Notes: generated by a model not told the origin, from the letters alone. A stretch of DNA of 47,075 nt from Candidatus Amphirhobacter heronislandensis (GCA_001750625.1 MEIE01000005.1:1-47075), one strand, 5' to 3'. Shown: positions 1,695-32,711, counted from the stretch's first letter. Translations and numbers: made by a program.

Positions 1695-2855
<1,161 letters not shown>

Positions 2856-2875
2856 CGTCTGCGCCGTGCGTGCAT

Positions 2876-2881
2876 ATTATA
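2876..2881 (-). promoter_or_regulatory. Putative -10 box of the sucCD-leuDB operon
   Basis: A perfect TATAAT lies on the minus strand, 20 nt upstream of the sucC ATG, in the short gap after the reductase gene. No good -35 hexamer is visible 16-18 nt upstream, so the call rests on position and the perfect hexamer in otherwise GC-rich DNA. Confidence 0.4.
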
Positions 2882-2885
2882 GGCT

Positions 2886-3644
2886 TTACCAATATTTCTC
2901 GATGGTGACGTTGCCGGGCCGGGCGCGGCGGTTGCGCTCGAGGCCCTTGGCCTGCAGCAGCGCGCAGACCTCCTGGACCATCGCCGGATTGCCGCACAGC
3001 ATGAACTGGCAGCTCGCGTCGAGCGCCGTTTTGGTGAGGCGCTCGAGCTCGCCGCTGGCGATCATCGCCGTCACCCGCTCGTTCGCGACGCCCTCGACCC
3101 GCTCGCGGGTGACGATCGGGACGTAGGCGAACTGCTTGCGCCGCAGCGCCGCGATCTCGGCGAGCTGGTCGTCGTAGAGCAGGTCCTGCCGCAGCCGCGC
3201 CGAATACACCAGCGCGATCTTCTCGTACCTGCTCCAGACCTCCTCGCCCGCCTGCAGGATGGAGACGAAGGGGCCGATGCCGGTGCCGGTCGCGATCATG
3301 AACAGGCTCAGCGCCTCGGGCACGTTCGCCAGCGTCAGCAGGCCGTTCGGCCGCATCGACACCAGCACCTCGTCGCCGGCGGCCAGCTCGGCGAGCCGCG
3401 GCGTCAGGTTGCCGCCCTCGGCCAGGACGTCGTAGCAGAACTCCAGCGTCGCCGCGGCCGGCGGATTCACGAAAGAATAGGCCCGCGCCAGCGGCTTCGC
3501 CTCGCCGTCCTGCGGCAGGCCCAGCTTGGTGAACTGGCCGGGGACGAAGTCCAGTCCCGGCGGCCGGGCAACTTGTAAAATACGCAGCTGGGACGTCGGG
3601 GCGAGCTGGCCCGCAACCTGGGCGGCCTGATATTCCTCGGGCAT
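2886..3644 (-). CDS. fpr: Ferredoxin/flavodoxin-NADP(+) reductase (Fpr type)
   Basis: This is a FAD-dependent oxidoreductase moving electrons between NADPH and ferredoxin or flavodoxin. The FAD-binding RAYSFVN motif, the NADP-binding MIATGTGIGPFVSIL segment, the LCGNP motif and the terminal aromatic residue (EKYW) are visible. With the ATG at 3642-3644 it has 252 residues, close to the family length; a longer reading to 3806 would add unrelated sequence and cross the divergent gene. A minus-strand TAGAAT at 3671-3676 fits a promoter about 26 nt upstream. Its start overlaps that of the rightward gene. Confidence 0.9.
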   Translation of the reverse strand: MPEEYQAAQVAGQLAPTSQLRILQVARPPGLDFVPGQFTKLGLPQDGEAKPLARAYSFVNPPAAATLEFCYDVLAEGGNLTPRLAELAAGDEVLVSMRPNGLLTLANVPEALSLFMIATGTGIGPFVSILQAGEEVWSRYEKIALVYSARLRQDLLYDDQLAEIAALRRKQFAYVPIVTRERVEGVANERVTAMIASGELERLTKTALDASCQFMLCGNPAMVQEVCALLQAKGLERNRRARPGNVTIEKYW

Positions 3645-4800
3645 GCGAACCTTTATGCTGGCAAGGCTGAATTCTACAATTTGCGGCCTGCTCGCCGCCG
3701 CCGCCTGGGCCAGCGCCGACCCCGCCACCGCGCTCGCGAAGGCGGTGCTGCCACCGGGCTTGAAGATCGTGCAGCTGGACGCCGGCCTCGACCGTCCCGC
3801 CGGCATCGACGTGTCGGCTGCCGGGCACTTGGCCGTCGGCAGCTACGGCGACAGCCTCTACCTCTACGAGCGGCTCCCCGACGGCAACGTCATCAGGCAC
3901 ATCCTCTCCGGCATGCGGGCGCCGACCGGCGTCGCCTGGCTCGGCGACGACCTGGTCTTAACCCAAGGCTCCTACTTGATAATGATCGCCGAGCCGCTCG
4001 CGAAGCTGCGCGAAGGCCGGGCGCTCGCGCCCCAGCAGCTCGCCAAGATCAACAAATCCTCGGGACGCCGGTTCCTCAAATACGACGGGGAACGGGAGCT
4101 TCTTTACGTCGGCGTCCCGTCCTCCTGCAACGCCTGCCAGGTTCCCGGCGAGGAGCTGGCGGGGACGATCATCGCCTACGACCTCAAGGCCAAGAGCAGC
4201 TACGTCCACGCCCGCGGCCTGCGCGCGCCCCGCAGCCTTGACGTCCATCCGGCCACCGGCGAGCTGTGGGCGACGGACGCCAGCGCCTACCGGCACCCGC
4301 CGGTCCCGACGCCCGCCGACGAGCTCAACCGCATCACCGCCCAGGGGCTGCACTTCGGCCATCCCCACTGCCACGGCATCGCTGGGCCAGAGGGCGAAGG
4401 CAGTCCCGGCTGCGACGGTTACGCGGCCCCGGCCGCGCTGCTCGACGCGCGCAGCCAGCCCCACGGCCTGCATTTCATCCGCAGCGACGCGCTGCTCGAG
4501 CCGGGCTCGGCGCTCGTCGCGCTGCGCGGCGGCTGGAAGGAAAAAGACGGCGGGCCGCGCGCCGGCTTCGAGGTGCGGCAGCTCCTGCTCTCGGCCGACG
4601 GCCGGCAGATTCTCGGCAGCAAGCCGTTCATCACCGGCTGGCTCGATGCGGACGAGCGCTACTACGCCCGGCCGGCCGGCATCGGCGAAACCGCCGAAGG
4701 CTCGATCCTCATCACCGACAGCGCCAACGGCGCGATCTACATCGTCTCAAAAGACCAGGGCAATGCATCAGGCCAGCATCAAGACGCCGGCGGAAATTGA
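3643..4800 (+). CDS. Exported glucose/sorbosone dehydrogenase-like beta-propeller protein
   Basis: The protein resembles the PQQ-dependent soluble sugar dehydrogenase (GSDH) beta-propeller family. Seen: a hydrophobic N-terminus compatible with a signal peptide (residues about 10-27, ending ASA), blades with the spacing RPAGIDV, RAPTGVAWL and RAPRSLDVHP, an HFGHPHCHG segment, and a closing blade with RPAGIGETAEGSILITDSANG. Family members oxidise sugars or related alcohols in the periplasm, but I cannot identify PQQ or calcium ligands with certainty, so activity and substrate are unknown. Starts at 3643 or 3655 are both possible; the first overlaps fpr. The 3' end overlaps map by 38 nt. Confidence 0.7.
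   Translation: MRTFMLARLNSTICGLLAAAAWASADPATALAKAVLPPGLKIVQLDAGLDRPAGIDVSAAGHLAVGSYGDSLYLYERLPDGNVIRHILSGMRAPTGVAWLGDDLVLTQGSYLIMIAEPLAKLREGRALAPQQLAKINKSSGRRFLKYDGERELLYVGVPSSCNACQVPGEELAGTIIAYDLKAKSSYVHARGLRAPRSLDVHPATGELWATDASAYRHPPVPTPADELNRITAQGLHFGHPHCHGIAGPEGEGSPGCDGYAAPAALLDARSQPHGLHFIRSDALLEPGSALVALRGGWKEKDGGPRAGFEVRQLLLSADGRQILGSKPFITGWLDADERYYARPAGIGETAEGSILITDSANGAIYIVSKDQGNASGQHQDAGGN
3671..3680. promoter_or_regulatory. Overlapping divergent -10 hexamers (fpr leftward, possible rightward)
   Basis: The segment 3671-3676 reads TAGAAT on the minus strand, correctly placed for fpr. On the plus strand 3675-3680 reads TACAAT. If the rightward box is used, transcription of the beta-propeller gene would start near 3687, inside its longest reading frame, so that gene's true start could be later than given here. 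Confidence 0.3.
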
Positions 4801-19537: not shown

Positions 19538-20226
19538 GCGGCGCGCTGGCGATCGACTGCACCTTCGGGGGCTTCAGCGCCGCGGTCGCCGGCCCAGGCG
19601 GAATCATCGACGAGCATCATCCGGACGTCCACGCCAGCGAAGGCCTGATCGACTGCGTCGACCGCCTGCTGCGCGACGCCGGGCTGGAGCTGGCCGGCCT
19701 CGACTTCCTCGCCTGCGGCGTCGGCCCGGGCAATTTCACCGGCATCCGCACCGCCTGCGGGACGGTCCAGGGATTTGGCTTCGTCCATAAGCTGCCGGCC
19801 GCCGGCATCGTCTCCACCCTCGCCCTCGCCCGCGCCAGCGGCTGCCAGCGGCGCTGCGCCGTCGCCTGCCGCGCCCACCGCGGCCACTGCTACCTCGCAA
19901 GCTACGAGGCCGAAGACGGCGAGCTGCGCGAGCGCGACGCCCCCGCCCTGCACGCCCTCGACGGCCTCCCGCCGCTCGAAGGCGACTGGGAGCTGTGCCT
20001 GCACGGCCGGATGAAGGACGAGCGGAAGGCCTTCGTAGCCGCCGTCACCGGCGCGGCGACGCTGGCCGACTGCCACGAGGGCTCGCTGGCGCCCACCGTG
20101 CTGGAGCTGGGCAGGCAGGAGCGGGAACGCGACGAGCTGGTGGACGTGCGGGCGCTCAAGCCGCTGTACGTGCGCAACAAGATCGCGCTGACCAAGGAAG
20201 AGCATCGGGCGGGCATGCGGCTGTGA
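19534..20226 (+). CDS. tsaB: tRNA threonylcarbamoyladenosine biosynthesis protein TsaB
   Basis: TsaB partners TsaD in making t6A37 in ANN-decoding tRNAs. The ATG at 19534 overlaps the pcnB stop, giving 230 residues. Seen: the N-terminal ASKHA-like ALAIDCTFGGFSAAV, the SEGLIDCVDRLLRDAG segment and the signature GVGPGNFTGIRTACG. In many Betaproteobacteria rimI lies between tsaB and the uracil-DNA glycosylase; here the glycosylase GTG overlaps the tsaB TGA directly. Confidence 0.93.
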   Translation: MSGALAIDCTFGGFSAAVAGPGGIIDEHHPDVHASEGLIDCVDRLLRDAGLELAGLDFLACGVGPGNFTGIRTACGTVQGFGFVHKLPAAGIVSTLALARASGCQRRCAVACRAHRGHCYLASYEAEDGELRERDAPALHALDGLPPLEGDWELCLHGRMKDERKAFVAAVTGAATLADCHEGSLAPTVLELGRQERERDELVDVRALKPLYVRNKIALTKEEHRAGMRL

Positions 20227-21009
20227 AGCGCAAGGACTACGAAGCGCTAGGCCTAGGAGTCTGGCACGACTGGGCGCGGCGGCTGCATGCGCCAGCCCCT
20301 GCTCCCGCTCCGACCCCGGCGGCGGTACCCGCCAAGCCTGCGGCCGCGGCGAAGGAGGCTGACCCCAGACCCGCCGCGGCGCCACCCAAGCCTGCGCCCA
20401 AGTCCACGCAGGCCAAGCCTGCCAAAGCAGCCAAGCCGGCCGCGAAGAAGGCGGACGCTCCCGCCCGCTCCACCGTGACCCTGCAGCCGCTGGCGGATCT
20501 TGAAGCCGAGGTGAAGCAGTGCGTCAAATGCGGGCTGAGCAAGGGCCGCACCAACACGGTCTTCGCGCGGGGCAAGAGCGTGACCAATGCGGTGATGTTC
20601 ATCGGCGAGGGGCCGGGCGAAGAGGAAGACCAGCAGGGCCTGCCCTTCGTCGGCCGCGGCGGCAAACTGCTCGACGCCATGATCGATGCCCTGCCGAAAC
20701 TGCAGGAGAAGGACGTCTACATCGCGAACATGGTCAAGTGCCGACCGCCGAACAACCGCGATCCTGAACCTGAGGAGCTGGCGGCCTGCCGTCCCTACCT
20801 CGACCGGCAGATCGAGCTGATCCAGCCGGAGGTGATCGTCACGGTCGGCAAGGTGGCCGCGAACAACCTGCTGGGTGCGCGGCGTGGTGCACGAGCACCG
20901 TGGCTGCAAGGTGATCTGCATGTACCACCCGGCCTACCTGCTGCGGGCGCCGATGCAGAAGCGCCAAGCTTGGAACGATCTGCTTTTTCTAGGCAAGCAA
21001 CTTTCCTAG
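20223..21009 (+). pseudogene. Family 4 uracil-DNA glycosylase, interrupted by a frameshift near 20875
   Basis: This is a [4Fe-4S] uracil-DNA glycosylase of the family 4/5 type. An Ala/Pro/Lys-rich linker (residues about 22-80) precedes [12 protein letters not shown], the [17 protein letters not shown] active-site loop and CRPPNNRDPEPEELAAC (remaining cluster cysteines). After VGKVAANNLLG at 20875 the frame is lost. The +1 frame continues with RGVVHEHRGCKVICMYHP and then AYLLRAP, the second catalytic motif, ending at TAG 21007-21009. About eight residues usual between NLLG and LRG are missing, fitting a deletion of about 23 nt. Read as one frame it would end at 21032 with an unrelated tail. 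Either a real inactivating mutation or a sequence error. The start is GTG 20223. Confidence 0.85.
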
Positions 21010-21028
21010 CCCCTCTCAAGAGATCCGC

Positions 21029-21058
21029 ATGATCTAATAGTGTATAATGTTAGATCAT
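21029..21058 (+). promoter_or_regulatory. Promoter with 9-bp inverted repeat and clustered GATC sites before the DUF262 gene
   Basis: ATGATCTAA (21029-21037), a 12-nt spacer and TTAGATCAT (21050-21058) form a perfect inverted repeat. A perfect TATAAT (21043-21048) lies in the spacer, so a protein bound to the repeat would cover the promoter. A third half-site, TGATCTA, follows at 21061-21067. Four GATC tetramers occur from 21022 to 21065. The DUF262 ATG is at 21085. Confidence 0.6.
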
Positions 21059-21084
21059 ATTGATCTATTGGGGGATTTGGCGCC

Positions 21085-22791
21085 ATGGACATTAAGAGCA
21101 ACGACACCGTCAGCTTGGAAAAAATTCTCAATCTGGGCACCCTTCATGTGCCTAAGTTTCAGCGCGATTATTCTTGGAGCAAGACCGAATGGAAGGAGCT
21201 CTGGGAAGACATAGACGACACATTCAGCACTTCCATGCAGATTGATCACCACTACATGGGCTATATGGTTCTGCAAGAGCATGCACCCGAAGCCGACGAG
21301 CACTTCGACATAATCGACGGTCAGCAACGCATAACCACTCTCTCCCTTCTTCTGCTTGCAGCCGTCCAGCATATCAAGGACATGGCACCTTCTAGCGAAA
21401 GAATAACTCTCCTCTTTGAAGCTTGCATAGGAAGCAAAAGCCCCACTACCCTCGAAATCACCAATAGACTGATTCTCAACAAACACAATAATCCGATTTA
21501 CTCAGAGTTGCTCAAACTAGATGGCGGACCGAACCGCAAAGAGATGATTGGGTCCAATCGACTTCTTTGCGGGGCCTTCGACTTTTTCAAAGAAATGATT
21601 GGCAAAAAATGCACCGGCGGTGAAAATGATTTTGCCGAGCTGGCGGGCGGCATCCTAAAAAACCTTCACTTCACATACATAACCGCAAGCAGGGATACAA
21701 ATATATATAAAATTTATCAGACGCTAAATGCTCGCGGCCTTGAACTATCAATTAGCGACTTGCTTAAAAACCATCTATTCACAACTATAGACAGCAAAGA
21801 AGGCCTGGGAGAAAAGCAAATAGATGATCTTCAGGATAGGTGGCGAGATATTGAAGACAATGTCAAAGCGGCCAATCTTGCAAAATTCATATCCTTGGAG
21901 TGGAACAGGCGCAATGAATTTTGCCGTAAGAAAGAGTTGTTCCAAAAGATAAGCAACGAACTTGACACTTCCCAAAGCGTTCATAGATATCTACGCACGT
22001 TAGATGGGAGCAGCAAAATGTACGCTCAATTACTCAAGTATGATCCTGATTACTGGAACAAAAGATGTCGAAAAATCACAGGTGAGATTCGAGCATGCCT
22101 TCGCTGCCTCAACGCCTTAGGAATCAAAAGTCCGCATGGACTATTGTTGACCGCCCTTCAAGAAATGTCGGATGAAGCCGAGCGCCTAAAGTCTATTCTT
22201 CGAATAATTACAGCGATTTCGGTTCGCTATAACTGCATATGCCAGAAACAAGCAAATATACAGGAGCAAACATACAGCAAAATTGCCAACGCCATTTCTC
22301 GAAGAAAATTTAAATTCGATGACAGAACTAAACAAATGTTTCAGGACATGTATCCTTCAGACAAAGAGTTTGAGGCCGCCTTTGCAGAAGTAGAATTTAA
22401 CTCTGCCCTCAAGCCTAAGTACCTCCTAATGTCCCTAGAAAACAATATAAACACAAGGGATATGATAGGCAAAAGCAAGGTGACCTTGGAACATATACTG
22501 CCTAAGAAGCCAAGCAACGAGTGGAAAAAAGATTTTCCCGGCAAGATTCATGAAAACTATATCCACAGATTAGGGAACATGACTTTGCTTCCCGAAAAGC
22601 CCAACAAAGAGCTTCGCAACAAACCTTTTAAGGAAAAGAAAAAAGAATTTAAAAAATCCTCAGTATTGCTGACTAAAACACATGTAAGCAAATATTCTGT
22701 TTGGAATCCGAAAAACATTGATAAGCATCAGCGATTTCTTGCCAAGTCCGCGCTTAAGGTCTGGTTCATCAACTGGGATTCGATCAAATGA
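21085..22791 (+). CDS. DUF262/DUF1524 protein (GmrSD-like, putative modification-dependent nuclease)
   Basis: The N-terminal DUF262 domain shows VPKFQRDYSW (residues 22-31) and DIIDGQQRITTLSLLLL (from residue 75); the DGQQR motif is the ParB/Srx-like nucleotide-hydrolysis site. The C-terminal DUF1524 His-Me (HNH) nuclease domain has LEHILP (His470) and RLGNMTLL with Asn498, then NKELRNKPF. Both domains in one 568-residue chain is the layout of GmrSD and related type IV enzymes that restrict phage DNA with modified bases. The substrate cannot be read from the sequence. Composition is much AT-richer than the flanking genes. The start is ATG 21085; an earlier G-rich run at 21069-21074 could bind ribosomes. 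Confidence 0.9.
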   Translation: MDIKSNDTVSLEKILNLGTLHVPKFQRDYSWSKTEWKELWEDIDDTFSTSMQIDHHYMGYMVLQEHAPEADEHFDIIDGQQRITTLSLLLLAAVQHIKDMAPSSERITLLFEACIGSKSPTTLEITNRLILNKHNNPIYSELLKLDGGPNRKEMIGSNRLLCGAFDFFKEMIGKKCTGGENDFAELAGGILKNLHFTYITASRDTNIYKIYQTLNARGLELSISDLLKNHLFTTIDSKEGLGEKQIDDLQDRWRDIEDNVKAANLAKFISLEWNRRNEFCRKKELFQKISNELDTSQSVHRYLRTLDGSSKMYAQLLKYDPDYWNKRCRKITGEIRACLRCLNALGIKSPHGLLLTALQEMSDEAERLKSILRIITAISVRYNCICQKQANIQEQTYSKIANAISRRKFKFDDRTKQMFQDMYPSDKEFEAAFAEVEFNSALKPKYLLMSLENNINTRDMIGKSKVTLEHILPKKPSNEWKKDFPGKIHENYIHRLGNMTLLPEKPNKELRNKPFKEKKKEFKKSSVLLTKTHVSKYSVWNPKNIDKHQRFLAKSALKVWFINWDSIK

Positions 22792-22831
22792 AATCTTGGA
22801 AACATTTTCCTAAAGCATGCGGTCGCTTTCT

Positions 22832-23506
22832 TCAGGATTTCATCATGGTTTCCTGAAATCTCCGATCAAATTCCTTTTCCCTGACCCAGCTAAAGCGCTT
22901 AGGGCTGACAAAAGACGCTGCCATGCGGTTGGATATCAAGCCAGCGATTTTTGCCTGGAATGACCGATCTTCAGGATTCTCGTGGTCCCCCTCCTTCGAG
23001 CTGTCGTCAGGCACCAGCATGATATAGTGGATGTTTGCATATTTGAAGATGCTAGCCAGCTCTCGATCCACTCCCACTTGATACATTCTCTCGAGAATGA
23101 GGAGCGTGGCCTGCGCTTTTGCGACATGCTCTTCGCAGAGTTCCCGGAAAATGAGATTCCAGATCTTGCGGGCACGCCGGCTTTCGTTGATTTTCGCAAT
23201 CAAGCCACGTCTATCTTCCTTGGCGAGGCCGGGCGCCAGATTTTTCAAGGCTTCCTTGAAACGATCTAAAGCGAGGTCGACTGATTTTGCGAAATCAGTC
23301 TTTTCGATGAGGACGAGACTTTTGCCCTCTTCAGTCTCGACGACTTTGTAGTAGTCGCAGCGATGCATGCGCCCGAAGTCAGCCCAGAGCTGGAGCACGA
23401 AAGACTCGCGTCCGTCCTCCTCATCAAGGCTCACCGCCTCGATGGCACTTCCTGCCGCCACCCGCTGCCGGTAGCAGTCGAGGATTATGATCCTAAGCGC
23501 GAGCAC
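22832..23506 (-). CDS. Unrecognised 224-residue protein coupled to an AAA ATPase
   Basis: I do not recognise this family. The protein is mostly helical-looking and charged, with EEDGRESFVLQLWADFG near the N-terminus, a central stretch rich in Lys/Arg/Glu (residues about 90-150) and a hydrophobic beta-like segment YANIHYIMLVPDD at about 172-184 followed by an acidic linker. It starts at GTG 23506, overlapping the 3' end of the upstream ATPase by 14 nt, so the two are translationally coupled. Such ATPase-plus-effector pairs are common in anti-phage systems; by position it could be the effector or sensor, but no catalytic motif is evident. Confidence 0.7.
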   Translation of the reverse strand: MLALRIIILDCYRQRVAAGSAIEAVSLDEEDGRESFVLQLWADFGRMHRCDYYKVVETEEGKSLVLIEKTDFAKSVDLALDRFKEALKNLAPGLAKEDRRGLIAKINESRRARKIWNLIFRELCEEHVAKAQATLLILERMYQVGVDRELASIFKYANIHYIMLVPDDSSKEGDHENPEDRSFQAKIAGLISNRMAASFVSPKRFSWVREKEFDRRFQETMMKS

Positions 23507-24789
23507 GCATCATTTCTCCGAAAAGGATTTGCATGTACACTTCGTTCAGCGAGTCCTGAATGAACTTGTCCTTGGTGAAGTAGTTCGCGGCGACTATCCG
23601 ATCGAGAACATCACTGTCCCTGACGCTGTATTTAAGATACTGGAGCGTGAACGTGCTGTGCGTCGCAATCACTATATTGATCCCTTTCAGGGCAAGCTTG
23701 GTTAAAACAACCGCCAGCGACGACTGCCATGCCGGATGCAGGTGCAGCTCGGGATCGTCTATGAAAATGGTTGAGTTCTCCTGCACTAGGCCCCGCTCAA
23801 CAAGTGCCAGCGGAGGCCATTGAAGCCTCGATTCTGAGGCCTTTCTTCCCCTTGAAATAAAGCTGGCCGCCTTCGTACTCGAACTTTCCTCCTATGATTT
23901 CGCTGATTTGATCCAGCTCTTCTTGGAAATCCCCTTGCGCGGCCCGAGGGAAGTCAAGCATCTTCGACAAATCCTCGTGGTAAGAAGGAAAGCATTTGGC
24001 CAAGCCATTCCCCCTTGGCATCCTGAAGCTTTCGATGCTGACCTGGGTTTCCAAGTTATCCAGATAGATGACAGAAGGCATGCCGCTTATTTTTGCAGCA
24101 TTTTTGACTGCGACCTTGCATTTGTTGCCCGTAGTCGCGAAGCTAAGCGCGCCCTTGATGTCGAGGCTGAATTCTTTTCGCTCTCCAGCTGCCAGCGCTG
24201 AAAGCCTGGGCGCCATGAAACTGCCCAGCAGCAAATCCGGCAAGGTCCGTTCAAGGGATTTGTGAAGAATCTTTTCCGGCGACAGCCTGGCAAAGGCCTT
24301 GATCGCCCGCACCGCGCGCTGGATTTCCTCGTAGTCCGTGCGAGACCCCCTCTTTTTGGCGGCAGCGGCCCCATTGGCCCGTTTCTTCGCGGCGCCGTTG
24401 CACATGGCTTCCGCCGTGAAAGCCGGCGCGGCGGCTACGGCGCGGACGCGCTCAACATAGCTCGCGCCGTCCCGCTCCAGGAAATGCAGGACATGCGCTG
24501 GCATCTCCGCAAGCTCCGCGATTTCCCGCCTCAGCGGGTCGGAACGCCTCCTGGCTCCGTAAGGCAGCAGCCGATGAAGGGTTTCGATCTCATGGCCGAC
24601 GAGGTTCCAGGCGTGATTGGAGTTGACCGCCCGCAGCGCCGAGTACAGCGTCTTGGCGGCGTAGGTCTTGCCCGAGCCGTTCCAGCCGCAGAACAGCGTG
24701 AGCCCGCCCAGGCCGATGCTCCCATTAGGGAGATTGCCCAGATTTTTTATGCTCGCAGTGAGTTTTATGGTGAATTCCTGCCCCGGGAC
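23493..24789 (-). pseudogene. AAA (ABC-type) ATPase, copy B, frameshifted near 23800
   Basis: This copy aligns along its length with the intact ATPase at 24988-26352. Walker A reads GWNGSGKT. The first frame stops at 23797-23799 after MASAGTC; the +1 frame resumes with LVERGLVQENSTIFIDDPEL (Walker B, where Asp replaces the usual Glu) and ATHSTFTLQYLKY (switch His kept), stopping at 23493-23495. Against copy A, 26 nt are missing between ASAG and LVERG, in the ABC signature region. No ATG, GTG or TTG lies at the homologous N-terminus (about 24789); a longer frame reaches an ATG at 24879 across a promoter-like element. Real inactivation or sequence error are both possible. Confidence 0.8.
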
Positions 24790-24790
24790 A

Positions 24791-24819
24791 ATTATAACAT
24801 ATGTTTTTCTTTTTTTCAG
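24791..24819 (-). promoter_or_regulatory. Upstream element of ATPase copy B (TATAAT preceded by an A-tract)
   Basis: On the minus strand CTG, an A-rich tract, CATATGT and TATAAT (24791-24796) lie just before the region homologous to the N-terminus of copy A. The same arrangement precedes copy A at 26353-26380. The box is so close to the coding region that transcription would begin inside it, leaving the real start unresolved. It may instead be an UP-like or binding element. Confidence 0.35.
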
Positions 24820-24987
24820 ACAAGACCGGAAAAGCCCGGTACTACAAGCAAAAATATATCCTTTGCCGCCTGGTTTCATCGAAAATCAGCTCCGGCGCGC
24901 TCCAAAGGCTGGGAAATAGGACGCCAGCCATCTCCCCTTCGGCTCTTCACCCTGCCCTCTGCCTGCAGAGATCGATCTCCCAAGTGC

Positions 24988-26352
24988 CTAGTCGCCGGCA
25001 AAGCCCCGATACATGGTGCGCACGTAGGTCTCGCTGAGCATTGCCTGGACCTGCTTCATCCTGTCGTAGTTATTGTCGTAATCCTTGAGCTCCCCGTTGA
25101 TTCCCTTGCCGCAGCTGCAGTGATTCACCGCGAACATCTTATCGAAAGCCTCGCTGTTCCGCGCGCGGTATTTCAGATGCTGGATTATGTAAGGGCTGTT
25201 CGTCACCAGCACTATGTTGATTCCGTCCAGCGCCAGACTGGTCAGGATCTTGGAAAACTCGACCTGCCACGCCGGATACAGGTCCGCCTCGGGCTCGTCA
25301 ATGAAAATCGTGGCGTTCTCCCGCAGCAGCCCCCTCTCGGCAAGCAGTCCCAGAATTCCAAGCCGCCGCACGCCAGCAGAAGCCAGCGCGGCGTTGATTC
25401 TGCGCCTCTTCTTCTCCTTGAAATGCAGGACGCCGTCTGCGTACTCGAGTTTTCCTCCGATGGTTTCAGCGATCTGGGCGCCAATGTCCCGAGAAAGGCC
25501 GGACGCGGACGGCGGACGGTCAAGCATGTCCAGGAAATCGTTGTGGTAGCAGGGAAAGTCTTCCGCTATCCCGTGCTGCGACCTCAGCCTGCCGAAGGCC
25601 CTTATCAGGCCGCTGCTGATCTTGGCCTCCATCCCGTCCAGGTAAATGACTGACGGCATCGCGCTGATTTTCGCAACGTCCTTGACCGCAAGCCTGCATT
25701 TGCTGTCCGCCGTGGCGAATCTCAGCACCCCCTTGATGTCAAAGCTGAAACCGCTTTTCCCGCCGGCGGCCAGCGCCGACAGCCCGGGCGCCATGAAACT
25801 GCCGAGCAGCAAAGCGGGCAGCGAGCTTGCAAGGGATTTTTGCAGCACCTTCTCCGCCGGCATCCTGGCAAATCTTTTGATCGCCTTTATTGACCTCTCC
25901 ATCTCGGCGAAATTGGCCTCCGCCACCCTGTCAGTGATCCTGCGGCCGTTCCTGAACCTCTTGGCGAATCCGGGATGCAGCGCCTCCGCGCAAAAACCCT
26001 GCCGCCCGGCCAAGGCGCGCACGCGCTCAGCGTAGCGGCCTTCCTTCAGGAGATGCGGGGGCATCCCCGCGAGCTCGGTTATTTTCCGCCGGAGGACAGC
26101 GGTCTTCCCAACAGGCCCGGCAGGCAGCGAGTGAGCGATCGTTTCGACATCATGGCCGACGAGGTTCCAGCCATGGTCGGCGTTCGCCGCCCGCAGCACC
26201 GAGTACAAGACCTTGGAGACATAGGTCTTGCCCGTATTGTTCGGGCCGCAGAGAAGCGTGAGGCCGCCCAGGCCAATCTCCCCCTTGGGAACCTTGCCCA
26301 GATTGGCTATGGAAGCGGTGAGTTTAATTTTGAAATCGCTACCTCGGGGCAT
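24988..26352 (-). CDS. AAA (ABC-type) ATPase, copy A, putative defence protein
   Basis: This 454-residue protein belongs to the RecF/OLD-like P-loop group of stand-alone ATPases often found in anti-phage systems. Walker A is GPNNTGKT (36-43), a signature-like ALASAG sits near 321-327, Walker B is TIFIDEPEADLYP (Asp352, Glu353), and the switch region reads LVTNSPY, with Asn385 where His is usual. The middle (about 60-300) is a helical insertion. The C-terminus (about 410-454) has a HCSCGKG segment not shared with copy B. ATG 26352 follows a TATAAT immediately, so the true start may differ. It is transcribed toward copy B and the partner gene. Confidence 0.8.
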   Translation of the reverse strand: MPRGSDFKIKLTASIANLGKVPKGEIGLGGLTLLCGPNNTGKTYVSKVLYSVLRAANADHGWNLVGHDVETIAHSLPAGPVGKTAVLRRKITELAGMPPHLLKEGRYAERVRALAGRQGFCAEALHPGFAKRFRNGRRITDRVAEANFAEMERSIKAIKRFARMPAEKVLQKSLASSLPALLLGSFMAPGLSALAAGGKSGFSFDIKGVLRFATADSKCRLAVKDVAKISAMPSVIYLDGMEAKISSGLIRAFGRLRSQHGIAEDFPCYHNDFLDMLDRPPSASGLSRDIGAQIAETIGGKLEYADGVLHFKEKKRRRINAALASAGVRRLGILGLLAERGLLRENATIFIDEPEADLYPAWQVEFSKILTSLALDGINIVLVTNSPYIIQHLKYRARNSEAFDKMFAVNHCSCGKGINGELKDYDNNYDRMKQVQAMLSETYVRTMYRGFAGD

Positions 26353-26380
26353 ATTATAACATGATTTTCATTTTTTGCAG
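26353..26380 (-). promoter_or_regulatory. Upstream element of ATPase copy A (TATAAT preceded by an A-tract)
   Basis: On the minus strand CTGC, an A-rich tract, CATGT and TATAAT (26353-26358) directly abut the annotated ATG. The element matches the one before copy B, so the duplication included upstream DNA. A transcription start about 7 nt downstream of the box would lie past this ATG. Confidence 0.35.
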
Positions 26381-26411
26381 GCACGCCTCGCCTTGCGCAG
26401 GGCCAGGCTAG

Positions 26412-26417
26412 TAAAAT
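26412..26417 (+). promoter_or_regulatory. Putative -10 box of the leuS operon
   Basis: TAAAAT lies 52 nt before the leuS ATG, in the short region between the island and leuS, with no strong -35 partner. A small hairpin with T6/A6 arms (about 26433-26447) sits between it and leuS and could lie in the leader RNA. Confidence 0.35.
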
Positions 26418-26469
26418 ACAACGCCTTACCAAGGGATTTTTTCAAAAAACCAGCCCCGGCGCAGTGGAA

Positions 26470-28920
26470 ATGCAGGACAAATACGACGCCAAGGCGGTCG
26501 AGCAGGCCGTCCGGCGGCGCTGGGAGGAGCGCGGCGCCTTCGCCGTCAAGGACGACGACCCCCGGCCGAAGTACTACAGCCTGTGCATGTGGCCCTACCC
26601 CTCGGGCGACCTGCACGTCGGGCATCTGCGCAACTACTCGATCGGCGACGTCTGGGCGCGCCACAAGCGCATGCAGGGCTTCAACGTCCTGCAGCCGATG
26701 GGCTGGGACGCCTTCGGCAAGGACGCCGAGCTCAAGGCCCGCAAGGAAGGAATCCACCCGGCCGCCTGGGTGGAGTCGAACACCGCGAACATGCGCCGCG
26801 AGCTCAGGGAGCTGGGCTACATGGTCGACTGGAGCCGCGAGCTGGCGACCTGCAACCCGAAGTACTACCGCTGGGAACAGCACCTGTTCCTGCGGATGTG
26901 GGAGAAGGACCTGGTCTACTACAGCCCGACCAAGGTGCTGTGGGACAAGGCCACCGGCACGGTGGTGGCGCGCCGCGACGTCGACGACGGCAAGGTGGCG
27001 CGGCAGGACGTCGAGGTCAGGGAGTTCCCGGCCTACCAGATGCGCCTGCGCCGCTACGGCGAGGAGCTGCTGGCGGGCCTGGCGAAGATCGCCTGGCCGG
27101 AGAAGATCGTCAAGGACCAGCAGTACCTGATCGGCCGCAGCGAGGGCATGAGCATCAGGTTCGCGCTGGAAGCCCCCGCCGCCGGCCTCGAGGAGATCGA
27201 GGTCTACACGACTCGCCCGGACACCCTGATGGGCGTGACCTACATGGCGGTCCACGCCAGCCACCCGCTGGCCGCGGCGGCCGCCGAACGCGACCCGAAG
27301 ATAAAGGAGTTCTGCGAGCAGGCCCTGCAGATCCTGCCGATCGACGCCGGCAACGCCGACAGCGAGAAGAACGGCGTCGCGCTCGACGTCCGCGTCCTCA
27401 ACCCGGTCTCGGGCGAGCCGGTCCCGGTGTGGGTGGCCGACTACGTCATCGACGACTACGGCAGCGGCGCGCTGATGGGCGTGCCGGCCCACGACGAGCG
27501 CGACTTCAGCTTCGCCCGCAAGTACGGCATCCCGATCGTCCGCGTCAACGCCCTGCCCGGCGCCGACCCGGCGGCGCCGGTCGAGCAGGCCGAGGTCGCC
27601 AAGGGCGTCGCGGTCAACAGCGGCCCGCTGGACGGCCTCGACCTCGCCGGCTGCGTCGCGAAGCTCGAGGAGCTGCTGGGCCCGAAAGGCAAGGCGCGGC
27701 GCGACCACAACATGAGCCTGCGCGACTGGCCGATCAACCGGCAGATGTACTGGGGCACGCCGATTCCGATCATCAAGTGCGCCAAGTGCGGCCTGGTGCC
27801 GGTGCCCGACGAGGACCTGCCGGTGGAGCTGCCGCTGGACGTCGACTTCCTCAAAGAAGGCCTCGCCTCCCACCCCGAGTTCGTCAACGCCAAGTGCCCC
27901 AAATGCGGCGCGGACGCGCAGCGCGAATGCGACACCATGGACACCTTCGTCAACTCCGCCTGGTACTACGCCCGCTTCGCCTGCCGCGACGCGGCGGACG
28001 AGATGGTCGCGGCGCGGGCCGCGCCCTGGCTGCCCTGCGACCACTACTTCGGCGGCGACGAGCACGCCCAGGGCCATCTGGTCTACGCGCGCTTCATCCA
28101 CAAGGTGATGCGCGACCTGAAGATCCTGCCGCCGGAGTCCGGCGACGAGCCCTTCGCGGCGCTGCTGTGCCAGGGCATGGTCCTCGGCAGCGACCGCAAG
28201 AAGATGTCCAAGTCGCAGGACAACACCGTGATGGCCAAGGACATCCTCGAGCGCTACGGCGCCGACACCGCGCGCATGTACATCATCGGCATCGGCAATC
28301 CCAAGGACGCCTACCCCTGGAACGAGGAGCACGTCCGCGACCACGCCCTGTTCCTCGAGGCGCTGTGGACCCTCGCCCGCGAGCGCCGCGAACAGGTCGC
28401 CGCCGGCGCGGACGCCGAGCCGGCGGCGGCGAACGGCCTCGCGCTCAAGCGGCTGCAGGCGGCGATCGACCGCAACCTCAAGGAGCAGCGCTTCAACAAC
28501 CTGGTCTTCGGCGGCATCCACTCCATCCGCAACCTGGTCCGCGACAACCCCGAGGACGCGGGCCTGCAGCATCAGGGCTTCGCCGCGCTGCTCAAGACGC
28601 TCAACCTGATCGCGCCGCACGTCGCCGAGGAATTGTGGGCCGGGCTCGGCTACGAGGGCCTGCTGATTGACGCCTCCTGGTGGGAGCCGATCGCGGCGGC
28701 CGAGCTGCAGGGCGACGAGCAGCTGTACGTCGTCCAGGTCAACGGCCGCAAGCGCGACGAGCTGACGGTCGCCGCCGGCCTCGGCGACGAGGAGGTGATC
28801 GCGGCCGCGCGCGCCTGCGCCAACGTCGCCCGCCACCTCGAGGGCAAGCAGGTCGCCCAGGCCAAGGTCGTGCGCAAGCCCGGCGGCCACGGCATCGTCT
28901 TCTTCGTCGCCAAGGGATGA
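26470..28920 (+). CDS. leuS: Leucyl-tRNA synthetase
   Basis: This is the class I synthetase that charges tRNA-Leu, with a CP1 editing domain. I chose ATG 26470 because MQDKYDAKAVEQAVRRRW matches the family N-terminus; a GTG two codons earlier is possible. The protein has 816 residues. The catalytic signatures are intact: HVGH at 49-52 and KMSKS at 578-582. The editing pocket has TTRPDT and GVPAHDERD, with the universal Asp at residue 345. Zinc-type Cys pairs CAKCG and CPKCG follow, and the C-terminal tRNA-binding domain ends the protein. Its stop overlaps the start of the LeuRS-like gene (ATGA). leuS followed by lptE and holA is the ancestral order. Confidence 0.98.
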   Translation: MQDKYDAKAVEQAVRRRWEERGAFAVKDDDPRPKYYSLCMWPYPSGDLHVGHLRNYSIGDVWARHKRMQGFNVLQPMGWDAFGKDAELKARKEGIHPAAWVESNTANMRRELRELGYMVDWSRELATCNPKYYRWEQHLFLRMWEKDLVYYSPTKVLWDKATGTVVARRDVDDGKVARQDVEVREFPAYQMRLRRYGEELLAGLAKIAWPEKIVKDQQYLIGRSEGMSIRFALEAPAAGLEEIEVYTTRPDTLMGVTYMAVHASHPLAAAAAERDPKIKEFCEQALQILPIDAGNADSEKNGVALDVRVLNPVSGEPVPVWVADYVIDDYGSGALMGVPAHDERDFSFARKYGIPIVRVNALPGADPAAPVEQAEVAKGVAVNSGPLDGLDLAGCVAKLEELLGPKGKARRDHNMSLRDWPINRQMYWGTPIPIIKCAKCGLVPVPDEDLPVELPLDVDFLKEGLASHPEFVNAKCPKCGADAQRECDTMDTFVNSAWYYARFACRDAADEMVAARAAPWLPCDHYFGGDEHAQGHLVYARFIHKVMRDLKILPPESGDEPFAALLCQGMVLGSDRKKMSKSQDNTVMAKDILERYGADTARMYIIGIGNPKDAYPWNEEHVRDHALFLEALWTLARERREQVAAGADAEPAAANGLALKRLQAAIDRNLKEQRFNNLVFGGIHSIRNLVRDNPEDAGLQHQGFAALLKTLNLIAPHVAEELWAGLGYEGLLIDASWWEPIAAAELQGDEQLYVVQVNGRKRDELTVAAGLGDEEVIAAARACANVARHLEGKQVAQAKVVRKPGGHGIVFFVAKG

Positions 28921-31900
28921 GCGCTTCAGGCGTGCGCTGCCGCGCGATGCCGCTGAGCCTGAGCGAGGAGCTCAACGCCGGCTCGTGCCGCAGCCTGCTG
29001 CTGAGCGACGTGATCGCGCGGCTGCGCCGCATGCAGGGCGAGCGGGTCGAGCCGGGCGCCAGCTGGGACAGCTTCGGGGCGGGCGTGCACATCGCGGCCA
29101 AGAACGAGGGCCTCGCGCCGCAGACCTACGTGCGCCGGACCATCGCCGCGCACCGCAGCGCGCTCGAGCGCCTCGACCTGCTGCTCGATCCCGGCGCCAT
29201 GCTCGACACCAGCGACCCGGCGCACGTCAAGTGGATCCAGGAGCTGTTCGTCCTGCTGTGGCGGGAGCGGCCGGCGACGCTGAACGAGGCCAAGGCGCAC
29301 AGCCACGCCTACTGGGATCCGGGGACCAAGAGCAACCTGGCGCTCAAGCAGATCGTCAACGGCCGCGGCTTCTTCTCGGGCATGCTGATCGAGATCCGCG
29401 AGGCCAGCTCCTACGAGATCCCGGTCTCGGTGGAACTGGGCGAGCGGCTGCTGGCCGGCCTCGAGCGCCTGGTCGGCTGGGACGACTTCGTCAAGAGCAT
29501 GCAGCGCGAGAGCGTCGGCCTCGAGGACGGCCTGCGCATGAGCTTCGGCCTTTTCGATCCGGCCCACCGCCGGCTGGAGCCGCTGGAGATCTTCACCTCG
29601 CGGCCGGACACCCTGCTCGGGACGACCTTCATCGCGGTCGCGGCCGACCATCCGCTGGCGCGGCGCATCGCGCACGACAGCGCCGCGGTCCGCGCCTTCC
29701 GCGAGGAGGTGATGCGGCCCGAGTACGCCTACCAGCGCCTCGGCGACGACAAGAGCCGCGACGGCGTCGAGCTCGGCGTGTACGCGGTCAACCCGGTCAA
29801 CGGCGACCACATCCCGGTGTGGGCGACCAACTTCGTGGTCGCGGGCTACGGCACCGGCGCGGCGCTGGGCATCCCGGGCCACGACCTGCGCAACCATCAT
29901 TTCGCGCTGCGCCACAACCTGCCGATCCGCCGGGTCGCGGTCGAGGACGGCGCCGACCCGACCGCCCCGATCAACTCGCCCTACGTCCACAAGCAGGGCC
30001 GCGCGGTCAACAGCGGCGCGCTGGACGCGGCGATCAACCGCCGCAAGAGCAGGCTGCGGCGCGAGGGCAACGACGGCGGCGGCGCCAGCCTGCGCGCCAA
30101 GCAGGACTGGGACCGCGGCGTCGCCGAGGAGGTGATCGCCTTCCTGGCCGAGCGCGGGGTCGATGCCACGCCGGCGACGATGGCGCGGCTGCGCGGCTGG
30201 AAGATCAGCCAGCAGGACTGCTGGGGCTATCCGGTGCCGCTGGTCCACTGCGAGGCCTGCGGGACCGTGCCGGTGCCGGCCGCCGAGCTGCCGCTGATGC
30301 CGCCGAAGTACGCCGAAGGCAAGGAGCTGCTGAGCGACTACCCGGCCTTCATCGCCTGCCGCTGCCCGCGCTGCGGCGGCAAGGCCGAGCGCGACGCCGA
30401 CACGCTGTCGAGCTATTTCGACGCCGCGGTCCAGCATCTCGCGGCCGGCGGCAAGAACATGACGTGGCGCGGCAAGGCCAAAGCGCGGCCGGTGGACTAC
30501 TACTGCTGCGGGGTCGAGCACGCCACCAACCATCTGCTGACGGCGCGCGTCATCCAGCGGCTGCTGGCGCAGGCGGGCCGGCTGGCCGGCGCGGCCGAGC
30601 CCTTCGCCGCGCTGCTGTGCCAGGGCACGGTGCTGAACTACGGCCTGCCGATGGCGCCGGGCTACGGCAACGCGGTGAGCGTCGCGAGCCTGCTGGACGC
30701 CTACGGCGCCGACCTGCTGCGGCTGTACGTCGCGACCGCGGCCGATCCGCGCCACCCGCTGCACTGGGACGAAAGCCGGCTGCTGGCGCTGCAGGGCGTC
30801 ATCGACGGCAAGGACCTCGCGGCGCTGCGGCGCGGCCGCCTGCGCGGGCTCAAGGCGGACAAGGTGGCGAACATGCTGAGCCCGCGGGAGCTGCGCCGGC
30901 TGCGCGAGGGCCTGCTGGGCCCCGAGGAATACGGCCTGCTGCTGCGCGACCGCCTGCCGGCGGCGCGGCTGCGCAAGGTCAAAAAAATCATCGGCGTAAG
31001 CGAGCTGGCGCGGCTGCGCGAAGGCATGTTCAGCGCCGCGCAGCTGCGGCGGCTGCGCAAGGGGGAGCTGACGCCGGCCGAGCAGGCCGCGGCGGCGGCA
31101 GAGTTCGACGCGCTGGAGCTGCGGCGGCTGCGGGACGGCCTGCTCGAGCGGCACGAGTTCGCCGCCCTGCTGCGCGGCGAACTGCCCGCCAAGCGCCTGG
31201 GCCAGGTCCAGCGCCACTGGCCGGCGGCGCTGCTCGCGAAGCTGCGCGCCAGCGGCGCCGACCCGGCCGACGCGGCCGCCGTCGCCGAGCTGCAGGAAAA
31301 GATCCTGACCCCGCTCGAACTGGTGGACGCTTTGCGGCAGGAGCAGCGGCTCGCGGCCGAGCGCAAGGCGCGGACGGTGCTGCGCGACGCCGACGTCCAG
31401 CGCCTGCGCGGCGGCCTGCTCGACCGCGGCGAGTGGAAACGGCTGCGCCAGGGCAAGCTCGCCGGCGCGAAGATGAAGGCGGCCAGGGAGCTGGCCGGCG
31501 AAGACGGGCTGGCGCGCATGCGCGGCGGCCTGCTCGACGAGGACGAGTTCGCCGCGCTGCTCGCCGGCAAGCTGCCGGCGGCCAGGCGGGCGCGGGCGGC
31601 GAAGCTGGTGGGCGAGGCGGCGCTGCGGCGCCTGCGGGCGGCGCGCGGCGCGCTGGCGCGGCTGCCGTTGCTGGAGAAGATCATGCCGGCGGAGCGCCTG
31701 TTCGGGACGCTGGCGGCCGGCGAGCCGGACGCCGGGCTGCGCCGGCGCCTGCTGGCCGTGCTCGACGCCAAGGAGCTCGCCAGCCTGCGGCAGGCGGCGG
31801 CCGCCCTGCCGGCGGACGGCTGGGTCCGGCTGACGGCCTTCGTCGACGAGCGGCGCATGGCGCGGCTGTGCGGCTTCGTGCCGGCCGCGAAGGAGAACAA

Positions 31901-32711
31901 ACTGGCGCGGCTGCTGGACGCGGTCGAGCTCAGGAGGCTGCGCGAGGAGGCGCGGCCGCGGCCGCCATTGCTGCGCTTCTTGCCGCCGGCGCGGATGGAC
32001 CGGCTGTGCGGCTTCATCGACGAAAGCAAGATGGACCGGCTGGTCAACCACCTCGACCCCGAGCGCATGGAGCTGCTGCTCGGCTTCACCGGCGCGCTGC
32101 GCGACCTGTTCGCGCGCAAGGACGCGGTCATCCGCGCCGGCGCGCGCCCGGACCCCGCCGATCCGCGCCGCGACGAGCTGCGGCGCGTCCTGCAGGCGCT
32201 CGGCTCCTGCTACGGCCTGGACCGGCGCCACGGCGTCCCCGAGCCGCAGCGCGCGCTGCCGCGCCTGCGCGAGCTCGCCGCGCTGCTCGAGACCGCATGC
32301 GACCCGGCCGACGCCGCGGACGCGGGTTTCGCCCGCGAGGCGGCGCGCGCCCTGCTGCTAGCGGCGCACCCCCTGCTCCCGGGCCTGACGGCCGAGCTGT
32401 GGGCCGCGGCCGGCTTCAAGGGCCAGCCGCTCGACGCGCCCTGGCCGCAGGTCGCCGCGCGCAAGGGCAAAGCGCGGGCGCGGCAAACCTGCATCATCCA
32501 GGAAAACGGCGCCAAGCGGCTCGTCACCGAGCACGAGGCCGGCCTGGCCGCGGCGCAGGCCAAGCGGCTGGCGCGGCGGGAGATGGCAAGATACGTCCAT
32601 GACCGCGGCTACCCGAGCTACCCGCGGCCGGGCGAGCGCATCCTCCGGACCGAGCACGTCGAGCGGCCGCACGAGACGGTGATCAACTTCGTCCTGGGGC
32701 CGGCGCGATGA
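28917..32711 (+). CDS. Giant LeuRS-like pseudoenzyme with inserted helical repeats
   Basis: The 1264-residue protein aligns with LeuRS over both ends. At residues 20-23 NAGS replaces HIGH; the following SDVIARLRRMQG matches GDVWARHKRMQG of LeuRS. The editing fold is kept (TSRPDTLLGTTFIAV at 227-241; GIPGHDLRN ending at 326), but the conserved last Asp is Asn. Zinc pairs CEACG and CPRCG remain. PMAPG (578-582) replaces KMSKS. Residues about 633-1065 are an Arg/Leu-rich helical insertion; after it come an anticodon-domain remnant (HPLLPGLTAELWAAAGF) and a C-terminal domain ending in VINFVLG. Aminoacylation is therefore unlikely; tRNA-Leu or LeuRS binding is an inference. Overlaps leuS and lptE by 4 nt each. 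Confidence 0.9.
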   Translation: MSASGVRCRAMPLSLSEELNAGSCRSLLLSDVIARLRRMQGERVEPGASWDSFGAGVHIAAKNEGLAPQTYVRRTIAAHRSALERLDLLLDPGAMLDTSDPAHVKWIQELFVLLWRERPATLNEAKAHSHAYWDPGTKSNLALKQIVNGRGFFSGMLIEIREASSYEIPVSVELGERLLAGLERLVGWDDFVKSMQRESVGLEDGLRMSFGLFDPAHRRLEPLEIFTSRPDTLLGTTFIAVAADHPLARRIAHDSAAVRAFREEVMRPEYAYQRLGDDKSRDGVELGVYAVNPVNGDHIPVWATNFVVAGYGTGAALGIPGHDLRNHHFALRHNLPIRRVAVEDGADPTAPINSPYVHKQGRAVNSGALDAAINRRKSRLRREGNDGGGASLRAKQDWDRGVAEEVIAFLAERGVDATPATMARLRGWKISQQDCWGYPVPLVHCEACGTVPVPAAELPLMPPKYAEGKELLSDYPAFIACRCPRCGGKAERDADTLSSYFDAAVQHLAAGGKNMTWRGKAKARPVDYYCCGVEHATNHLLTARVIQRLLAQAGRLAGAAEPFAALLCQGTVLNYGLPMAPGYGNAVSVASLLDAYGADLLRLYVATAADPRHPLHWDESRLLALQGVIDGKDLAALRRGRLRGLKADKVANMLSPRELRRLREGLLGPEEYGLLLRDRLPAARLRKVKKIIGVSELARLREGMFSAAQLRRLRKGELTPAEQAAAAAEFDALELRRLRDGLLERHEFAALLRGELPAKRLGQVQRHWPAALLAKLRASGADPADAAAVAELQEKILTPLELVDALRQEQRLAAERKARTVLRDADVQRLRGGLLDRGEWKRLRQGKLAGAKMKAARELAGEDGLARMRGGLLDEDEFAALLAGKLPAARRARAAKLVGEAALRRLRAARGALARLPLLEKIMPAERLFGTLAAGEPDAGLRRRLLAVLDAKELASLRQAAAALPADGWVRLTAFVDERRMARLCGFVPAAKENKLARLLDAVELRRLREEARPRPPLLRFLPPARMDRLCGFIDESKMDRLVNHLDPERMELLLGFTGALRDLFARKDAVIRAGARPDPADPRRDELRRVLQALGSCYGLDRRHGVPEPQRALPRLRELAALLETACDPADAADAGFAREAARALLLAAHPLLPGLTAELWAAAGFKGQPLDAPWPQVAARKGKARARQTCIIQENGAKRLVTEHEAGLAAAQAKRLARREMARYVHDRGYPSYPRPGERILRTEHVERPHETVINFVLGPAR
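30813..32111 (+). repeat. Protein repeat array in the LeuRS-like gene (38-residue / 114-bp period, then a second type)
   Basis: A half unit (residues 633-657) precedes six units starting at residues 658, 696, 734, 772, 826 and 864 (nt 30888, 31002, 31116, 31230, 31392, 31506). Five are exactly 38 residues; the fourth is 38 plus a 16-residue insertion. The shared pattern is xLxRLRxGLLxxxEF, then xxLLxGxLPAxRxx and a variable end. Residues about 902-1065 carry a diverged type around RMARLCGFV and RMDRLCGFI with LDPERMELLLGF. The units look like two-helix solenoid repeats. The strict phase suggests internal tandem duplication. Confidence 0.85.

What the first reader, a model, noticed from the sequence alone, without database searches (positions are those of the whole stretch)
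21010..26380. Compact candidate anti-phage island
A GmrSD-like DUF262/DUF1524 protein faces a cassette of two paralogous AAA ATPases plus an unknown protein. The DUF262 gene stands out by AT content in an otherwise GC-saturated window. ATPase-effector pairs and GmrSD enzymes are established defence families. The combination with duplicated ATPases is not one I recognise as a named system.
Basis: partly seen in the sequence, partly recalled or inferred. Interest (0 to 1): 0.72.

Follow-up and report, generated by a model that had tools for sequence, protein, structure and literature searches.

The report
Two defence modules, one decaying
Between two housekeeping operons sit an intact, recently acquired GmrSD-type restriction enzyme and, facing it, an older ATPase-plus-nuclease-like cassette whose ATPase was duplicated on the spot and then broken; both are relatives of known anti-phage systems, so the island is real but largely ordinary.

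Summary
The genes are there, but they are two separate modules and not one new system.

(1) 21085-22791 (+) is an intact single-chain GmrSD enzyme (DUF262+DUF1524), a clear member of PADLOC family HEC-06 (E 1.6e-154) with the GmrSD motifs present. Its GC3 is 0.50, against about 0.95 for host genes.

(2) The minus-strand cassette (22832-26352) is a divergent relative of the two-gene 'OLD-type ABC ATPase + PD-(D/E)XK nuclease' modules (WonAB, PD-T4-4, HEC-02, PDC-M47). Such modules occur alone, with one ATPase, on plasmids and a P2-like phage.

The 'two paralogous ATPases' arose by tandem duplication in place: the gap between them holds a decayed copy of the leuS leader and first leuS codons. 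The downstream copy is a pseudogene (start lost; a 26-bp deletion removes the ABC signature). The surviving copy has Asn for the H-loop His that is invariant in relatives and essential in WonA, so the cassette may no longer work. The 'unknown' 224-aa protein is probably a divergent PD-(D/E)XK effector, on modest evidence.

ATPase and effector have no close counterpart in 94 related genomes. Verdict: new member of a known kind, partly decayed.

The parts
20226..21010 (+). Left flank: uracil-DNA glycosylase gene, reading frame broken near 20880 (about 20 bp missing compared with relatives; C-terminal '[34 protein letters not shown]' lies in another frame)
21017..21070 (.). Operator-like inverted repeat (21-nt arms, 81% complementary, with the 17-nt dyad TAGATCATATTGATCTA at 21051) around a TATAAT (21043-21048) just upstream of the GmrSD gene; the 17-mer occurs once in the genome
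   Evidence: function inferred only
21085..22791 (+). Intact single-chain GmrSD (DUF262 + DUF1524), 568 aa, HEC-06 family; FQRDY (25), IIDGQQR (76), LEHILP (468), GNMTLL (497, N498) and N507 present
22832..23506 (-). 224-aa probable effector, divergent PD-(D/E)XK-like core (HRCDYY...LVLIEKTDF); overlaps the end of ATPase 1 by 14 bp
   Evidence: no family hit
23493..23786 (-). ATPase 1, C-terminal fragment in the shifted frame (Walker B FIDDPE with D for E; H-loop ATHS intact)
23797..24879 (-). ATPase 1, N-terminal fragment (homology from about 24789; Walker A GWNGSGKT); ends at TGA just after a 26-bp deletion that removes the ABC-signature region; original start lost (ATT; only an upstream ATG at 24879 within leader-derived DNA)
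24763..24926 (.). Decayed tandem duplicate of 26323-26491 (ATPase 5' end, promoter/leader, leuS leader and first leuS codons)
24988..26352 (-). ATPase 2, intact 454-aa OLD-type ABC/AAA_15-AAA_21 ATPase (Walker A GPNNTGKT, signature ASAG, Walker B FIDEPE, H-loop His replaced by Asn in VTNSP)
26464..28920 (+). Right flank: leuS (its leader and 5' end are the right boundary of the duplicated unit)

Best explanation
Two independently acquired defence modules lie at the boundary between the ispA-pcnB-tsaB-UDG block and the leuS operon. Module A (shown: intact ORF and motifs; inferred: activity) is a single-chain GmrSD of the HEC-06 family: its DUF262 half would bind NTP and sense modified bases in incoming phage DNA, and its DUF1524 His-Me finger half would cut that DNA. 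It is the most recent arrival. Module B (shown: gene content, homology of the ATPase, duplication, lesions; inferred: function) descends from a two-gene operon of the WonAB/PD-T4-4/HEC-02 kind: an OLD-type ABC ATPase dimer that senses infection and controls a small PD-(D/E)XK-like nuclease, leading to abortive infection. Next to leuS the ATPase gene was duplicated in tandem, together with the leuS leader and first codons. The copy beside the effector then lost its start and its signature region, and the other copy lost the H-loop histidine. Module B is therefore probably non-functional or weakly functional today, while module A is probably functional.
For: GmrSD: Pfam GmrSD_N 5.4e-35 and GmrSD_C 2.2e-26; HEC-06 1.6e-154 over residues 7-563; motifs at the published spacing, E-H...N...N with the two Asn nine residues apart. 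Separate modules. ATPase family: PD-T4-4_A 3.9e-28, HEC-02A 2.6e-23; phrog_14430 over nearly its whole length at 1.1e-40, the same family as plasmid ATPases with an adjacent small protein. Tandem duplication: 26323-26491 against 24763-24926 scores 85, best of 1000 shuffles 37; the part outside the ATPase gene alone scores 49, none of 2000 shuffles. Lesions. Effector core: joint effector profiles align at CDY...LIE, 0 or 1 of 100 shuffles as good. WonA requires its Walker B Glu and H-loop His (PMC12137116).
Against: The effector assignment rests on weak profile scores (hhalign P about 0.01-0.02, probability 2-4%), is not significant against the HEC-02-like and phrog_14430-partner profiles taken alone, and no structure could be predicted. 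The deletions in ATPase 1 and UDG come from a fragmented draft genome, and read support cannot be checked. dN/dS between the ATPases (about 0.35/0.84) shows long purifying selection, so module B was used for a long time and may still be, through ATPase 2 alone.
Confidence: 0.74

Rival explanations
1. A single composite system: GmrSD, the two ATPases and the 224-aa protein act together, or as a divergent Menshen system (DUF262 + AAA ATPase + OLD-type protein).
For: DUF262 and OLD-type genes occur together in Menshen (PMC10952713). The ATPase 1 C-terminal fragment has the Menshen model NsnB as its best PADLOC hit (8.3e-17).
Against: The window protein carries DUF1524, which Menshen lacks. No Menshen DUF262 model is among the 25 best PADLOC hits of its DUF262 half, which are HEC-06, Orf5, mREase_IV and SspE. 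The full ATPase 2 prefers PD-T4-4_A and HEC-02A. The genes are on opposite strands and differ in composition, and homologues of each module occur without the other.
Confidence: 0.07
2. ATPase 1 and ATPase 2 were, or are, an asymmetric heterodimeric sensor. Each keeps one catalytic residue that the other has lost (Walker B E to D in one, H-loop H to N in the other), and ATPase 1 is made from two chains or by frameshifting, or the deletion is an assembly error.
For: Complementary substitutions at two positions that are invariant in the aligned relatives. dN/dS below 1 in both parts. Heterodimeric ABC ATPases with one degenerate site are well known (own knowledge).
Against: In the sequence as given, the 26-bp deletion removes the signature region itself, not only the frame. 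The original start is gone. No slippery sequence was seen at the junction. Related modules use one ATPase.
Confidence: 0.12
3. The whole island is defence debris, the GmrSD included, in a genome that is losing genes (the neighbouring UDG is also broken).
For: UDG and ATPase 1 are both broken; small genome (1.6 Mb).
Against: The GmrSD ORF is full length with every tested motif, and its low GC3 says that it arrived recently.
Confidence: 0.1
4. Ordinary chromosomal ABC/SMC-like genes of the lineage with a repair role, not defence.
For: Neighbour of a DNA-repair gene; long residence beside leuS.
Against: No close homologue in 94 relatives, including the one of the same family and three of the same order; foreign composition; nearest family members sit on plasmids and phages in accessory positions.
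Confidence: 0.04

Closest known systems
HEC-06 / single-chain GmrSD type IV restriction enzymes (Eco94GmrSD, BrxU, GrwA as kin)
   Same: Full-length profile match, domain order DUF262-DUF1524, QR, DGQQR and E-H-N-N motifs
   Different: Only about 35% identical or less to the best plasmid homologues; target modification unknown
WonAB (OLD-ABC ATPase + PD-(D/E)XK nuclease, V. cholerae)
   Same: Gene order ATPase then small protein, overlapping genes, ABC motifs, apparent nuclease-like core
   Different: ATPase duplicated and one copy broken; H-loop Asn in the intact copy; effector core at the limit of detection; direct sequence comparison with WonAB not made
PD-T4-4 / PDC-M47
   Same: ATPase of about 455 aa, best PADLOC model PD-T4-4_A; effector pairs best with a PD-T4-4_B-like protein (L179, z 4.8)
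   Different: Effector matches no PD-T4-4_B or PDC-M47B model
HEC-02
   Same: ATPase model hit; one HEC-02 effector (L170) also has E-x-T in place of E-x-K
   Different: HEC-02 ATPases are about 100 aa shorter; effector model not matched
phrog_14430 ATPases of small plasmids and other loci (L181, L182, L024)
   Same: Whole-length family match (1.1e-40) and an adjacent small protein with a D...E-x-K core
   Different: These modules have one ATPase and a canonical E-x-K
Menshen
   Same: DUF262 protein near an OLD-type ATPase
   Different: DUF1524 present, opposite orientation, no Menshen DUF262 hit among the best models

Membership tests
GmrSD / HEC-06 | DUF262 followed by DUF1524 in one chain | tested here: met
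GmrSD / HEC-06 | Full-length match to the HEC-06 profile | tested here: met
   residues 7-563 of 568, E 1.6e-154
GmrSD / HEC-06 | QR, (I/V)DGQQR and E/D-H-N-N motifs | tested here: met
   the FxxxN motif reads YQTLN here
GmrSD / HEC-06 | Cleavage of modified DNA, phage restriction | not testable with these tools
   needs phage plating or in vitro digestion
OLD-ABC ATPase + PD-(D/E)XK modules (WonAB / PD-T4-4 / HEC-02) | ATPase of the AAA_15/AAA_21 OLD-like type | tested here: met
OLD-ABC ATPase + PD-(D/E)XK modules (WonAB / PD-T4-4 / HEC-02) | Catalytic Walker A, signature, Walker B and H-loop all present in the ATPase | tested here: not met
   ATPase 2 lacks the H-loop His; ATPase 1 lacks the signature and has D for the Walker B Glu
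OLD-ABC ATPase + PD-(D/E)XK modules (WonAB / PD-T4-4 / HEC-02) | Adjacent small gene with PD-(D/E)XK core | tested here: inconclusive
   weak but consistent alignment at the core; Lys replaced or shifted by one
OLD-ABC ATPase + PD-(D/E)XK modules (WonAB / PD-T4-4 / HEC-02) | Effector matches a named effector model | tested here: not met
   no PADLOC hit for the 224-aa protein; so it is filed as kin of these modules, not as a member of any one of them
Menshen | DUF262 protein without DUF1524 | tested here: not met
Menshen | Genes together in one operon | tested here: not met
   DUF262 gene on the opposite strand (that Menshen is one operon is own knowledge)

The most novel reading that the evidence does not exclude
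The two ATPases evolved as an asymmetric heterodimeric OLD-type sensor with complementary degenerate catalytic sites, an arrangement that I know of in no named WonAB/PD-T4-4-type system, and the lesions in ATPase 1 are recent or an artefact of this assembly.
Probability: 0.1. Interest if true: 0.5.

Novelty: new member of a known kind. Interest (0 to 1): 0.3.

Why it matters
It adds a divergent HEC-06/GmrSD enzyme and a far outlier of the poorly characterised ATPase-nuclease family. It also records, in one place, how a defence cassette ages: acquisition, on-site tandem duplication that copied part of an essential gene, then loss of catalytic residues, with a newer defence gene next to it. It warns against reading 'duplicated ATPases' as system architecture.

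Tried and rejected
Close relatives of ATPase or effector: none in viral contigs, plasmids (11, 12), genome contigs by conserved peptides (22) or by the DNA pattern for FMAPxLSALA (47: 103 stretches, none homologous by tblastn), phages (92, 93: only short distant ATPase matches), or 398 genomes of the phylum for the effector (40). Solved structures: no sequence match for effector or ATPase (42, 43). One composite system or Menshen: rejected. Effector remnant between the ATPases: none above chance; what lies there is leuS-derived. Programmed frameshift in ATPase 1: rejected, because the signature region itself is missing and no slippery site is seen. The paper that classifies ABC ATPases (PMC7544218) is not held.

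Full report
What is there. The window is contig C185 of a 1.6-Mb, 239-contig draft genome (87.6% complete). Between the ispA-pcnB-tsaB-UDG block and leuS lie a 568-aa gene on + (21085-22791) and a convergent minus-strand cassette (26352 down to 22832). GC falls from about 70% to 42% over the first gene and 52-60% over the cassette; third-position GC is 0.50, 0.65, 0.67 and 0.78 for GmrSD, the 224-aa protein, ATPase 1 and ATPase 2, against mostly 0.88-1.00 in clear host genes. The block ispA-pcnB-tsaB-UDG is kept together in one genome of the same order (G003), and leuS with its usual downstream genes lies on another contig there, so the island sits at a junction that is not ancestral in that comparison.

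GmrSD. The + strand protein hits GmrSD_N and GmrSD_C in Pfam and HEC-06 over its whole length (E 1.6e-154). It has FQRDY, IIDGQQR, LEHILP, GNMTLL and a second Asn nine residues after the first, the E/D-H-N-N pattern described for GmrD in PMC4619093. HEC-06 is reported to have antiviral activity (PMC12988326). Homologues on plasmids are about 35% identical or less. In the five neighbourhoods read they sit beside transposases, methyltransferase and type I restriction genes, a recombinase or unknown genes, never beside this ATPase module. An inverted repeat surrounds a TATAAT upstream; its core occurs once in the genome.

The ATPases. ATPase 2 (454 aa) belongs to the OLD-like AAA_15/AAA_21 group. 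Its best PADLOC models are PD-T4-4_A, HEC-02A and PDC-M47A, and phrog_14430 covers nearly all of it (1.1e-40). The same phrog covers the ATPases of loci L024, L181 and L182. In L181 and L182 the ATPase is followed by a small overlapping 'hypothetical' gene on Acinetobacter and Klebsiella plasmids, and similar pairs are on other enterobacterial plasmids and in a P2-like Vibrio phage between repressor and integrase. All have one ATPase. In an alignment with relatives every relative keeps the Walker B Glu and the H-loop His. ATPase 2 has Asn for the His; ATPase 1 has Asp for the Glu. Both residues are essential in WonA (E300A and H333A abolish protection, PMC12137116).

ATPase 1 is a pseudogene as sequenced. 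The N-terminal fragment reads ...EASMASAGTC and stops; the C-terminal fragment continues in another frame. Compared with ATPase 2 (ASAGVRRLGILGLLAERGLL), 27 bases have become one. The position of the ATPase 2 start codon reads ATT in ATPase 1, and the only upstream in-frame ATG lies in leader-derived DNA.

The duplication happened on the spot. The stretch 24763-24926, between the two ATPases, aligns with 26323-26491, which holds the ATPase 2 5' end, its leader, the leuS leader and the first 20-30 bases of leuS. The score is 85 against a maximum of 37 in 1000 shuffles. Without the ATPase part it is 49 against a maximum of 39 in 2000; the leuS coding part alone is matched by 5 of 2000 shuffles. 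So the unit that was copied included the edge of leuS, and the ATPase was already beside leuS (in this lineage, or in a near relative that gave the DNA by homologous recombination). dN is about 0.35 and dS about 0.84: the duplication is old and both copies were constrained for much of the time.

The 224-aa protein. No Pfam, NCBIfam, PADLOC, PHROGs or PDB sequence match. The partner genes of related ATPases encode small proteins with D...E-x-K cores, and several match HEC-02, PDC-M47 or PD-T4-4 effector models. Profiles of them align with residues about 42-74 of the window protein (HRCDYYKVVETEEGKSLVLIEKTDF). The shuffle test gives 0/100 for the PD-T4-4-like set and for two joint sets, 1/100 for two other joint sets, and 8/100 or worse for the other single sets. 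The best single partner is L179 (z 4.8; 1 of 300 shuffles), where E-x-K aligns to E-K. A HEC-02 effector, L170 (the same gene as in L021), has E-V-T at the same site. I take the 224-aa protein as a probable but unproven PD-(D/E)XK-like effector of doubtful activity.

Reading. Two modules, not one system. GmrSD: recent, intact, probably active against phages with modified DNA. ATPase cassette: older, of the WonAB/PD-T4-4 kind, degraded. WonAB acts by abortive infection after the start of phage replication (PMC12137116); a like mode for the ancestor of this cassette is inference. The Menshen alternative (DUF262 with an OLD-type gene, PMC10952713) fails on domain content, orientation and profile hits.

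Limits.

Noticed in passing
28917-32711 (+): A second LeuRS-like protein (about 1264 aa) overlaps the end of leuS and the start of the next gene (lptE-like, 32708). By eye it lacks the HIGH and KMSKS motifs; it keeps the editing domain (PF13603, 1.2e-41) and carries a long stretch of Leu/Arg-rich repeats. Of the 27 genomes searched (this one and 26 relatives), only this one has it in addition to ordinary leuS; it could be a trans-editing factor.
   Followed up: partly
20226-21010 (+): The uracil-DNA glycosylase gene is frame-shifted by a deletion of about 20 bp near 20880, so the HPAYLL motif is out of frame; no second copy of this family was found in the genome.
   Followed up: partly
21017-21070: Inverted repeat around the TATAAT upstream of the GmrSD gene; its 17-nt core is unique in the genome. 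Possibly an operator, although no regulator gene lies in the island.
   Followed up: partly
L021 (G155) 2338-4430: A TIR-like N-terminal domain is fused to a HEC-02-type ATPase, with an effector that has E-V-T instead of E-x-K.
   Followed up: no
L189 (Vibrio phage 1.202.O, P2-like) 2131-4162: An ATPase and small-protein pair lies between the repressor and integrase genes, likely a phage-borne defence module.
   Followed up: no
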